Below are positions 16,593 to 19,666 of a stretch of DNA of 64,000 nt, piece after piece. The DNA is taken from NCBI GenBank assembly GCA_036702865.1, contig DATNQD010000063.1, forward strand, positions 1-64,000. Direction: 5' to 3'. This DNA comes from Trichocoleus sp. (GTDB taxonomy: Bacteria; Cyanobacteriota; Cyanobacteriia; Elainellales; Elainellaceae). The first letter of the stretch is position 1. Every line of letters starts with the position of its first letter. The position numbers were made by a program, and so were the translations under genes. The notes beneath the pieces were generated by a model. The model was not told the origin of the DNA. It saw only the letters and a list, made by a program, of their open reading frames with translations, and made no database searches.

Positions 16593-16621
16593 TTGACAGC
16601 AAAAATTAAAACAGTAACAAT
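16593..16621 (+). promoter_or_regulatory. Sigma-70-type promoter of the riboswitch transcript
   Basis: A perfect -35 TTGACA (16593-16598) is followed after 16-17 bases by TAACAAT (-10). The predicted start near 16628 lies just ahead of the glutamine aptamer, which is the expected arrangement. Confidence 0.5.
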
Positions 16622-16635
16622 AGATACAGAAATAA

Positions 16636-16726
16636 ATCGTTCATCCCTCCAAGACCCAGCGCTAACTTAAGTGAAACCTGGATTGAGAGAGACGGAAGTA
16701 GGGATTCTTCCCGAAGGAACGCGCCT
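16636..16726 (+). promoter_or_regulatory. Glutamine riboswitch (glnA / Downstream-peptide motif)
   Basis: The leader contains, in order, ATCGTTCATCC (16636-16646), a variable hairpin closed by CCAG...CTGG, GACGGAAGTAGG (16691-16702), a small GGGATTCTTCCC hairpin, and CCGAAGGAACGCG (16711-16723). CGTTC pairs with GAACG as P1. These are the conserved blocks of the cyanobacterial glutamine aptamer (Ames and Breaker), recalled from family knowledge. It ends about 40 bases before the ATG of the DUF4278 gene; a purine-rich site AAGAGGCG lies in that gap. Control at translation initiation or termination cannot be decided by eye. Confidence 0.85.
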
Positions 16727-16765
16727 CATTTCACCCAACACACTTCAAGAAAAGAGGCGAAAGCT

Positions 16766-17185
16766 ATGAAACTGACATATCGTGGTGTTACTTACGACTA
16801 CAATCCTCCCCAAGTGGAGTATGGCGATCGAGCAGCAGTCGGCAAATATCGGGGCGTTGATATCCGGTTCCGCAACATCCAAAAAGCACCAGTGCTTCAG
16901 CCCACGCTTGATCTAATTTATCGCGGCGCTGCCCATACAGTTAATCCGGCTCCCGTGCCTGAGACTGCAAAAGCACCTGCATTGTCTGTGTCCGATCGGG
17001 CAAGAGTTTTGATGATGGATCATCATCGCTCTGTGAAGCGGCGTCAGCAAGCAATGCTCGCTCGAACAGATGCTCAAGTCGGGTTAGATGCTAAAGCGGC
17101 ATCAAGCTTCTGGAACCACATTCAAGGCACAACACATCCTTCGTTTAACGACAGCTACGATCGGAGCCATGCTGCCCTGAGCTAA
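16766..17185 (+). CDS. DUF4278 protein under glutamine-riboswitch control
   Basis: The 139-residue protein begins with the DUF4278 signature 'MKLTYRGVTYDYNPP' and contains a second partial copy 'LIYRGAAHTVNP' (about 50-61), so it looks like two small repeats followed by a basic, helix-rich tail ('MMDHHRSVKRRQQAMLARTDAQ'). A good ribosome site AAGAGG precedes the ATG. The glutamine aptamer upstream means expression should follow intracellular glutamine, linking this otherwise uncharacterised family to nitrogen status. A strong terminator follows. It is convergent with agrE, an arginine-catabolic nitrogen gene. Confidence 0.8.
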   Translation: MKLTYRGVTYDYNPPQVEYGDRAAVGKYRGVDIRFRNIQKAPVLQPTLDLIYRGAAHTVNPAPVPETAKAPALSVSDRARVLMMDHHRSVKRRQQAMLARTDAQVGLDAKAASSFWNHIQGTTHPSFNDSYDRSHAALS

Positions 17186-17228
17186 GCCTTTGAATCCTCA
17201 AGTTTGTCTCTAGTTAGCTGATTAAACG

Positions 17229-17252
17229 CACCCCTTCGTGGGGTGTTTTTTG
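17229..17252 (+). terminator. Rho-independent terminator of the DUF4278 gene
   Basis: A perfect CACCCC-TTCG-TGGGGTG hairpin (UUCG tetraloop) is followed by six T. A second inverted repeat GGTAGCC/...AGCTACC at 17264-17289, nearer agrE, has no T-run. Confidence 0.9.
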
Positions 17253-17299: not shown

Positions 17300-19429
17300 T
17301 TAGGACGTTCTTGCCAGTTGATAAGGACTGGTCAACCGATCGAGCTGCTGCACCATCAGGCTCAAGAACAAACCGACATCAGTAACAACGCCGACTGACT
17401 CAACCGAACCTCGATCGCTCAGTTTCGTTACAACTGCCGGGTTGATATCGACGCAAACCATCTTCACGCCTGCGGGGGTCATGTTGCCTGTGCCGATCGA
17501 ATGCAGCATGGAGGAGAGCATCAAGATCAGGTCAGCCCCTTTGATCAGTTCAGCATATTCTTGCTGAGCGCGGATCAAGTCCATTTGGGTATCCGGCAGA
17601 GGACCATCATCGCGGATTGAGCCTGCCAGCGCAAAGGGGACGTTCTGCTTAACGCACTCGTAGAAGATGCCGTTTGTTAGAATGCCTTGCTCGACTGCTT
17701 CAGGGATGCTGCCTGCTCGGCGAATCGTGTTGATGGCTTTCAGGTGATGGCGATGCCCGCCCCGAACTGAAACGCCTCGCTTCATGTCCATTCCCAGGGA
17801 TGTGCCCATCATGGACTGCTCAATGTCATGCACTGCGATCGCATTGCCGCCCAGAAGTGCCTGAACATAGCCTTCGCGGATCAGGTGTGCCAGGTGTTCG
17901 CCGCCGCCAGTATGGATGACAACAGGGCCTGCAACCACAACGACTTTGCCGCCCTGGTCACGAATTTTGCGAAGTTCCCAGGCGATTTGTTCGACTACCA
18001 GTTCTACCCGCCGTTCGCTAGAAACGCCAGACCCCATAAAGCTGAATTCTTCCGGCTTCGTTTGGTTGCTCCGTTGCTCACGGGATTCGGTCTTGCGGAT
18101 TGTGCGAATTCCATCAACGCCAACAATTACCTTGTCGTCAACTTTGAGGTCGCGCAGCAGTTTGCATTCAGCAGCGATGCCAGTTGGAGTTTGACTAACA
18201 ACGATCGCCCCATCCATGCGCTGATTCTCGACTTTGACCCATTCACAGTTGACGCGAACTTCAGTCGGATAAATCGTGGTGACATAGAAATCATCGGGAG
18301 CAACACCATCTTTGGTCACAACTTCCAATGGGTTATCGCACACTTCTTGGGGACGCGGCACTGCCCCAATGTCGATCACTTGCGTCATGATGTTCTCCAT
18401 CACGTCATGATCAGGAGCGGTGACCTTAATTTCAGCCGTTGAGGTGCTTTGCCGCTGTTCTCCTAAGCAGAAATTTAAGACTTGGAAGCTGCCGCCTGCC
18501 TCAACGATCGCATCTAATGCTCGGTTGATAATGCCAGAATCGAGCAAATGTCCTTGCAGTTGAACCACCCGGCTCTCGATCGCAGCAACAGCATGATGTA
18601 ATGGCTGAACCGATTCGGTGACGCGTAACGTGAGACATTTTGCCGCTCCGCCTGCCTTGAGGAATTCAGTGAGCGGGGTTTCGAGTACCTGGAACCCAGC
18701 AGATGCCAATCGCTGCTTCAGTTCATCGCTGGCTTTGTTCATGATGACGAGGCGATCGATGTTCACCGCATTACAGGCAAAATTGACGGCATCAGGTTCG
18801 CTCACGGCAATTCGCTTCGACTCTGGCACTCGCATTTCAATCATGCGGTTAGAGTAGGAATCAAACGCAGGTGGATAGTAGAGTAAGTAGCCATCGAGCA
18901 GCGGACAGAAACAGGTATCAAGGTGATAAAATCGCTCATCCATCAAGCGCAAAGACAGCACTTCAATGTCCAGCCACTTTGCTAAATAAGGATGGGAATC
19001 AAGTTCTGAGCGGAAGCCATAGCCTGCCCAAAGCCAACGTCCTTCTCGATCGAGCAAAGCATCGCCTGCACCTTCAAAAGGCAAATCTTTTGGTAGCACA
19101 TGAACGGTAAAGCCCTGATCCTCAAACCACTGCTGGAAATAAGGCTCTTCACCCTGCCGCTCCTTGTGATAGAAACGACTCAAAACCACCGTATTTTCTA
19201 GGACTAAGCCAGCGTTTGCGGTAAATACGAGGTCGGGAACACCTTTTTGCGGTGTGATTAAATCAACCAGTGCATGTTCCTTTATGATGTGATACAGTCC
19301 TTCCCACTGCTCCACCGCCCGATCGCGCGAAGACTTGTGAATGTTTCCTTCCATCCAGGGGTTAATCACATAGTCCACATCATAATGATCGGGGGCGCAC
19401 ATCAGAAACCGAATCGGTGAGGTACTCAT
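17300..19429 (-). CDS. agrE: Arginine dihydrolase / ornithine cyclodeaminase-like bifunctional enzyme (AgrE/ArgZ)
   Basis: AgrE (Anabaena) or ArgZ (Synechocystis) removes the guanidinium group of arginine, giving ornithine, CO2 and two ammonia; in AgrE the C-terminal LOR/SDH domain then produces proline. The frame is open from 19501, but homology starts at the ATG at 19429 (MSTSPIRFLMCAPDHYDVDY), giving 709 residues. The guanidine-modifying domain (1-285) keeps the catalytic Cys265 in GGAAKCLTL and the 'FYHLDTCFCPL' histidine. A linker and the DUF6917-like middle domain lead to the Rossmann-type C-terminal domain ('GKVVVVAGPVVIHTGGG'). Together they mobilise nitrogen from arginine and cyanophycin. 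Confidence 0.93.
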   Translation of the reverse strand: MSTSPIRFLMCAPDHYDVDYVINPWMEGNIHKSSRDRAVEQWEGLYHIIKEHALVDLITPQKGVPDLVFTANAGLVLENTVVLSRFYHKERQGEEPYFQQWFEDQGFTVHVLPKDLPFEGAGDALLDREGRWLWAGYGFRSELDSHPYLAKWLDIEVLSLRLMDERFYHLDTCFCPLLDGYLLYYPPAFDSYSNRMIEMRVPESKRIAVSEPDAVNFACNAVNIDRLVIMNKASDELKQRLASAGFQVLETPLTEFLKAGGAAKCLTLRVTESVQPLHHAVAAIESRVVQLQGHLLDSGIINRALDAIVEAGGSFQVLNFCLGEQRQSTSTAEIKVTAPDHDVMENIMTQVIDIGAVPRPQEVCDNPLEVVTKDGVAPDDFYVTTIYPTEVRVNCEWVKVENQRMDGAIVVSQTPTGIAAECKLLRDLKVDDKVIVGVDGIRTIRKTESREQRSNQTKPEEFSFMGSGVSSERRVELVVEQIAWELRKIRDQGGKVVVVAGPVVIHTGGGEHLAHLIREGYVQALLGGNAIAVHDIEQSMMGTSLGMDMKRGVSVRGGHRHHLKAINTIRRAGSIPEAVEQGILTNGIFYECVKQNVPFALAGSIRDDGPLPDTQMDLIRAQQEYAELIKGADLILMLSSMLHSIGTGNMTPAGVKMVCVDINPAVVTKLSDRGSVESVGVVTDVGLFLSLMVQQLDRLTSPYQLARTS

Positions 19430-19666
19430 AATAAACCTGTAGCGTTGTGTGTGATGGATGCAGCAAAACCTGTGCAACCTTGGCTTTAGCCCAAAGGTCA
19501 ACGATGATACTGAAAATCTGACGATTCAAATTGTGTCCAAACGAACAGCTTGAGAAACTGTTAGAAAAAGCCAACTTTTTATCTTGGCATAAGATTCGCG
19601 TCTAGTGCTTTAAGTTTTGCAGTCCATCCTTCCCTTCAATCCTAATCAATTCTTGTTGCATTGCTC

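What the first reader, a model, noticed from the sequence alone, without database searches (positions are those of the whole stretch)
16593..17252. DUF4278 gene behind a canonical glutamine riboswitch
Promoter, aptamer blocks (CGTTCATCC, GACGGAAGTAGG, CGAAGGAACGCG), gene with good ribosome site and strong terminator form a tidy single-gene unit. Known glutamine riboswitches control nitrogen genes and short 'downstream peptides'. A DUF4278 protein of 139 residues under glutamine control suggests that this widely distributed, unassigned family works in nitrogen signalling. I recall the aptamer consensus; I have not aligned it.
Basis: partly seen in the sequence, partly recalled or inferred. Interest (0 to 1): 0.6.

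Follow-up and report, generated by a model that had tools for sequence, protein, structure and literature searches.

The report
Glutamine-switched glutamine synthetase inhibitor gene (gifB)
The gene is gifB, which makes a small protein that shuts off the cyanobacterial enzyme glutamine synthetase, and it sits behind an RNA switch that senses glutamine; this feedback loop is already known, but two sister genes in the same genome carry the same switch and front domain on a different inhibitor-like module.

Summary
Rfam's glutamine riboswitch (RF01739) covers 16636-16725 at 47 bits, cut-off 35, before a 139-residue ORF with N-terminal DUF4278. The gene is gifB (IF17). Its riboswitch and DUF4278 N-terminus are in print (PMC6316151), so this is a known feedback loop, not a new pathway. 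Detail added here: a perfect NtcA box overlaps the -10 element (16614-16627; same place in 58 of 83 leaders), and a strand just 3' of the aptamer pairs with the ribosome site (6 or more pairs in 64 of 83 leaders). More interesting are two sister genes: the same genome has two more riboswitch-led DUF4278 genes whose C-termini resemble PirA, the PII-binding brake on arginine synthesis, though below the curated PirA cut-off. In 59 genomes there are 31 in-frame DUF4278-PirA-like ORFs, 17 with the riboswitch. The PirA paper left such extended forms as possible misannotations (PMC8092223).

The parts
16593..16621 (+). sigma-70-like promoter, TTGACA - 17 nt - AACAAT
   Evidence: consensus scan, 10 of 12 matches; 2 promoter-like sites found in the kilobase, 1.2 expected; not tested for function
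16614..16627 (+). NtcA box GTA-N8-TAC, overlapping the -10 hexamer (repressor position)
   Evidence: perfect match (4 in the window, 3.5 expected by chance, so it is the position that counts); same place in 58 of 83 glutamine riboswitch leaders, 1.7 expected by shuffling
16636..16725 (+). type 1 glutamine riboswitch aptamer (RF01739)
   Evidence: 47 bits, gathering 35
16722..16727 (+). anti-Shine-Dalgarno strand CGCCTC, directly 3' of P1
   Evidence: pairs 6 of 6 with 16754-16759
16754..16759 (+). ribosome-binding site GAGGCG, 6 nt before ATG, partner of the anti-SD strand
16766..17185 (+). gifB, IF17 glutamine synthetase inactivating factor, 139 aa: DUF4278 (1-56), linker, IF7-type domain (74-139)
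   Evidence: PF14105 74.3 bits; NF052599 88.7 bits, cut-off 70
17228..17252 (+). intrinsic terminator
   Evidence: 7-pair stem and T run

Best explanation
This is gifB. Its product IF17 binds glutamine synthetase (GS) and switches it off. Transcription is held down by NtcA, bound over the -10 element, when nitrogen is short (2-oxoglutarate high). When nitrogen is ample NtcA leaves and the mRNA is made, but its ribosome site is paired with CGCCUC just 3' of the aptamer's P1 helix. Glutamine binding recruits the first base of that strand (C16722) into the bound aptamer and so loosens the anti-SD helix; IF17 is translated and inhibits GS, which lowers glutamine. Shown here by sequence: aptamer, both protein domains, NtcA box, covarying anti-SD helix, GS gene in the genome. 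Taken from literature on Synechocystis: IF17 inhibits GS, NtcA represses gifB, glutamine raises IF17. Inferred: that C16722 is the base contested between the two structures, and that all this holds in this organism.
For: Aptamer over gathering score. IF domain over the curated cut-off. R80, R93 and R100 are invariant in 39 aligned homologues and, by my own reading, line up with R8/R21/R28 of the genome's own IF7; the review speaks of three essential arginines of IF7, that these are R8/R21/R28 is recalled. Riboswitch in front of 28 of 32 DUF4278+IF genes in 59 genomes and of 76 of 80 named IF17-like loci (56 by pattern, 20 of the other 24 by Rfam; missing L184, L195, L208, L213). NtcA box ending 7-18 nt before the aptamer in 58 of 83 leaders, 1.7 expected, and before 53 of the 56 pattern-found aptamers of the named loci. 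Tail-to-SD helix of 6 or more pairs in 64 of 83 leaders; true partners pair better than re-dealt ones (mean score 16.2 against 15.2, maximum 15.94 in 300 permutations, 72 unique leaders; shuffled ribosome sites 9.8), with paired changes CGCTTC:GAAGCG (L002, L135) and CGCTTC:GGAGCG (L066, L067, two related genomes). GS gene present, GlnA model 690 bits. No terminator-like site between aptamer and ATG.
Against: No expression or binding data for this organism. The folded leader as a whole is not more stable than shuffles (z -1.06), and its MFE shows P1 and the anti-SD hairpin side by side, so mutual exclusion rests on one base known from crystal work (recalled as G23-C60; [quoted passage not shown] 19 of 83 leaders lack a 6-pair helix, the paralogue C54 (L001) among them, and L103 has the changed tail without a matching ribosome site. 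The start-codon rule chose a wrong ATG at least in L091 and L092. The structure model is weak (pLDDT 65, pTM 0.32) and gave no fold match.
Confidence: 0.93

Rival explanations
1. One reading: a DUF4278 protein of unassigned function with its own new role in nitrogen signalling.
For: DUF4278 is present and most glutamine riboswitches found precede DUF4278 genes: 66 of 83.
Against: The C-terminal 66 residues match the IF family over its curated cut-off; this architecture is published as IF17.
Confidence: 0.03
2. The aptamer acts on transcription (attenuation) and not on translation.
For: Only that a leader platform of either kind is possible in principle; no positive evidence found.
Against: No terminator-like site between aptamer and ATG; the conserved covarying element pairs with the ribosome site.
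Confidence: 0.08
3. NtcA alone controls the gene and the aptamer is a relic.
For: A perfect NtcA box overlaps the -10; 4 of 32 DUF4278+IF genes had no RF01739 match.
Against: Aptamer and platform are intact and match the consensus; found at 76 of 80 named loci.
Confidence: 0.04

Closest known systems
gifB / IF17 (sll1515) of Synechocystis sp. PCC 6803
   Same: DUF4278 N-terminus plus IF7-like C-terminus; type 1 glutamine riboswitch in the 5' UTR; NtcA-repressed (PMC6316151, passages, section)
   Different: 139 residues here; the two other riboswitch-led DUF4278 genes of this genome carry a PirA-like C-terminus. The Synechocystis sequence itself was not compared.
gifA / IF7
   Same: homologous to residues 74-139; own copy at G000:C85:69290-69487
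   Different: no DUF4278 match, and no RF01739 match at that place
[quoted passage not shown]
   Same: small nitrogen-regulated inhibitor protein; a similar segment is fused to DUF4278 in paralogues C54 and C88
   Different: no PirA match in the window gene
RF01739 glutamine riboswitch (glnA motif)
   Same: full-length match
   Different: 39 bases in the P2 arm where the consensus has 4, otherwise ordinary

Membership tests
Type 1 glutamine riboswitch (RF01739) | score over the Rfam gathering threshold with P1, P2, P3 | tested here: met
   47 bits vs 35, model 1-53
Type 1 glutamine riboswitch (RF01739) | binds L-glutamine and raises expression | not testable with these tools
   needs in-line probing and a reporter
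IF17 / GifB | C-terminal IF7-like domain | tested here: met
   NF052599 88.7 bits vs 70, residues 74-139
IF17 / GifB | DUF4278 N-terminus | tested here: met
   PF14105 74.3 bits vs 25.3
IF17 / GifB | conserved arginines of the GS-binding region | tested here: met
   R80, R93, R100 invariant in 39 sequences; which residues were mutated in the literature is recalled
IF17 / GifB | NtcA site in the promoter | tested here: met
   GTAACAATAGATAC 16614-16627
IF17 / GifB | inhibits glutamine synthetase | not testable with these tools
   target gene present
PirA (considered for paralogues C54 and C88, not for the window gene) | score over the NF050139 cut-off of 50 bits | tested here: not met
   42.7 and 44.6 bits, E 4e-11 and 1e-11: PirA-like, not PirA; 20 of 31 DUF4278-PirA-like ORFs in 59 genomes do pass

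The most novel reading that the evidence does not exclude
DUF4278 is a shared carrier domain of a glutamine-riboswitch regulon. It is fused to different inhibitor modules: IF7 (acts on glutamine synthetase) or PirA-like (would act on PII and hence arginine synthesis). Glutamine would then brake both nitrogen entry and nitrogen storage through one kind of RNA switch, with NtcA as a second lock on both. In this genome the three RF01739 switches and the three DUF4278 genes pair one to one: one DUF4278-IF and two DUF4278-PirA-like. This would make the N-extended PirA proteins that PMC8092223 set aside as possible misannotations real, glutamine-controlled regulators.
Probability: 0.6. Interest if true: 0.6.

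Novelty: new member of a known kind. Interest (0 to 1): 0.36.

Why it matters
For the window gene: it is one more copy of a known feedback loop, and naming it closes the finding. For the wider set: the survey gives many DUF4278-PirA-like proteins a start codon, an NtcA box and a switch, so the statement that the function of N-extended PirA forms 'remains elusive' (PMC8092223) becomes directly testable, and it suggests that glutamine sensing in cyanobacteria may reach arginine synthesis as well as glutamine synthetase.

Tried and rejected
Rejected: that the convergent neighbour ArgZ (17300-19501, minus strand) is functionally linked; it was found in none of 80 IF17-like loci within the flank held (up to 2,500 bases, less where contigs end), whereas a LigT-like gene was found in 29 of 80, which looks like plain synteny.

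Rejected: a solved relative of the protein; phmmer against PDB gave one chance hit at E 0.16 and Foldseek nothing at E 0.001 or better. The AlphaFold model (three beta-hairpins at the YRG motifs, linker, helix 75-105) is too weak to argue from.

Inconclusive: a tree of 61 DUF4278 domains on 75 columns (63 had been collected, two were lost because two rows bore one name). Labels are clustered (12 changes against 28.4 when shuffled), well-supported branches force at least 3 changes for IF and 1 for PirA-like, and long branches meet; whether C-termini were swapped once or often is open.

Caveats on counts: the DUF4278 list was cut at its weak end, so counts of DUF4278 genes are lower bounds; by eye L060, L063 and L075, counted as lacking DUF4278, begin with YRG motifs. 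IF and PirA rows include matches below the curated cut-offs (E 0.001 or better). 4 of 83 riboswitch matches are under the gathering score, and one search used stricter filters; L146 was picked up only later. L156 was fetched but not searched with Rfam. The scan kept 80 of 95 relatives. In one search the start codon was the first ATG with 38 or more codons, wrong at least in L091 and L092; these rows were kept. Of the eight pairs the pair L091/L092 is void for that reason; the rest are four PirA-like pairs (three of them among three related genomes) and three IF pairs.

Literature: Klahn et al. 2018 (PMC6212724) is not held, so the anti-SD helix and PirA-like targets may already be described there. 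PMC6316151: passages and section 12. PMC11288750, PMC7760959, PMC8092223, PMC12475003, PMC8400943, PMC5393176: passages only. The search PirA + DUF4278 returned 0 papers of the held library; of the 40 papers listed (58 found) two hold the word DUF4278.

Full report
1. The observation. Rfam's covariance model for the glutamine riboswitch matches 16636-16725 over its whole length at 47 bits, gathering score 35; the only other family that reaches its threshold in the 64 kb window is a tRNA. The ORF 16766-17185 encodes 139 residues.

2. What the gene is. Pfam finds DUF4278 in residues 1-56. NCBIfam finds the glutamine synthetase inactivating factor family NF052599 in residues 74-139 at 88.7 bits, above its cut-off of 70. 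DUF4278 plus an IF7-like C-terminus is the published architecture of IF17, product of gifB; the review PMC6316151 states that DUF4278 covers the N-terminal part of IF17, that glutamine aptamers are mainly associated with DUF4278 genes, and that the aptamer in the gifB leader controls IF17 production. Another paper (PMC8400943, passages) reports one of two gifB candidates directly behind a glutamine riboswitch in Limnospira. In an alignment of 39 sequences R80, R93 and R100 are invariant. The window gene is thus gifB.

3. Context in its genome. There are three RF01739 matches and three DUF4278 genes and they pair one to one. gifA (IF7) is separate at C85, a stand-alone PirA at C36 (85.2 bits), and glutamine synthetase at C59. 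The upstream neighbour is a LigT-like phosphoesterase, the convergent neighbour ArgZ. A LigT-like gene lies in 29 of 80 IF17-like loci, ArgZ in none within the flank held.

4. How it is likely switched. A perfect GTA-N8-TAC box (16614-16627) overlaps the -10 hexamer. Such boxes are not rare (4 in the window, 3.5 expected), but across 83 riboswitch leaders from 40 of the 59 genomes 58 have one ending 7-18 nt before the aptamer, against 1.7 expected from shuffles and 1 hit in the control stretch -280 to -120. Directly after the P1 helix, CGCCTC (16722-16727) can pair with the ribosome site GAGGCG (16754-16759); this hairpin is in the MFE of the isolated stretch (z -1.98, 7 of 200 shuffles as stable). 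In 64 of 83 leaders the tail and the ribosome site form a helix of at least 6 pairs. Natural partners pair better than re-dealt ones (16.2 against a maximum of 15.94 in 300 permutations, 72 unique leaders). Five tails read CGCTTC; four of them (two from closely related genomes) meet ribosome sites changed to GAAGCG or GGAGCG, the fifth, L103, does not. In crystal work G22 and G23 of the aptamer are disordered in the free state (PMC5393176, passage); I recall, without having read it here, that G23 pairs in the bound state with the base that corresponds to C16722. That would let glutamine take C16722 out of the anti-SD helix. No terminator-like site lies between aptamer and ATG. Against: the full leader is not unusually stable (z -1.06), its MFE shows P1 and the hairpin together, and 19 of 83 leaders, including the paralogue C54, lack the 6-pair helix.

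5. Survey. In 59 genomes of the class, the window's own included (joined): 83 riboswitch matches in 40 genomes (79 over the gathering score); 66 of 83 are followed within 400 nt by a listed DUF4278 match, 28 of these with an IF match; 28 of 32 DUF4278+IF genes, 39 of 118 other listed DUF4278 matches and 3 of 45 IF matches without a listed DUF4278 have the riboswitch. One of those three, L075, begins with YRG motifs by eye, so DUF4278 counts are lower bounds. Among 80 named IF17-like loci (Elainella saxicola 71% identical, among the nearest) 76 have it.

6. The unexpected part. The other two DUF4278 proteins of this genome end in a segment that matches PirA_Argsyn (NF050139) at 42.7 and 44.6 bits, E 4e-11 and 1e-11, below the curated cut-off of 50. 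In the 59 genomes there are 31 DUF4278-PirA-like ORFs, all 31 in frame, 20 of them over the cut-off; 16 have RF01739, and cmscan of the other 15 adds one, L146, leaving 14 without. The 16 also have the NtcA box (16 of 16). dN/dS is 0.06-0.16 in the four DUF4278-PirA-like pairs compared, from five genomes, which speaks for selection on the whole protein. Nine genomes carry riboswitch-led versions of both kinds, weak IF matches counted. The PirA paper says that N-extended PirA forms are suggested by annotations in a few strains, that false annotation cannot be excluded, and that their function remains elusive (PMC8092223, passage). No held paper has both words PirA and DUF4278. Binding to PII is inferred, not shown.

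7. Verdict. The finding is correct in observation and ordinary in kind: gifB under its known riboswitch. Its value lies in the sister genes.

Noticed in passing
L001 1036-1455 (-) and L002 1026-1460 (-), same genome: Two further riboswitch-led DUF4278 genes with PirA-like C-termini and perfect NtcA boxes.
   Followed up: yes
L062, L064, L065, L068, L069, L070, L072, just after the riboswitch: Seven glutamine riboswitches precede a 42-53 residue protein, apparently one membrane span with a P-x-x-CW-x-L motif (read by eye). Two of the seven were scanned: L069 had no NCBIfam or Pfam match, L062 no Pfam match.
   Followed up: partly
L074 (G005:C58): A glutamine riboswitch with no listed DUF4278 gene leads a short weakly IF-like ORF (23.8 bits) followed, in the same orientation, by a PirA-like ORF over the PirA cut-off (84.2 bits).
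   Followed up: partly
L076 (G043:C1:1849552): An IF-like protein of 80 residues (68.7 bits, just under the cut-off of 70) directly behind a glutamine riboswitch, without a listed DUF4278 match.
   Followed up: no
L171, L111, L139: IF17-like proteins that stop after the arginine-rich helix (about residue 107 of the window protein) and lack the IQGK...YDRS part.
   Followed up: no
L066 and L067: A 140-residue protein behind a glutamine riboswitch in two related genomes; the L066 copy had no NCBIfam match and no Pfam match over cut-off.
   Followed up: no
L112, L120-L122 (G046:C2, G081:C360): Two tandem triplets of 56-residue DUF4278-only genes, each gene with its own glutamine riboswitch.
   Followed up: no
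window 17300-19501 (-): ArgZ, bifunctional arginine dihydrolase/ornithine cyclodeaminase, convergent with gifB.
   Followed up: yes
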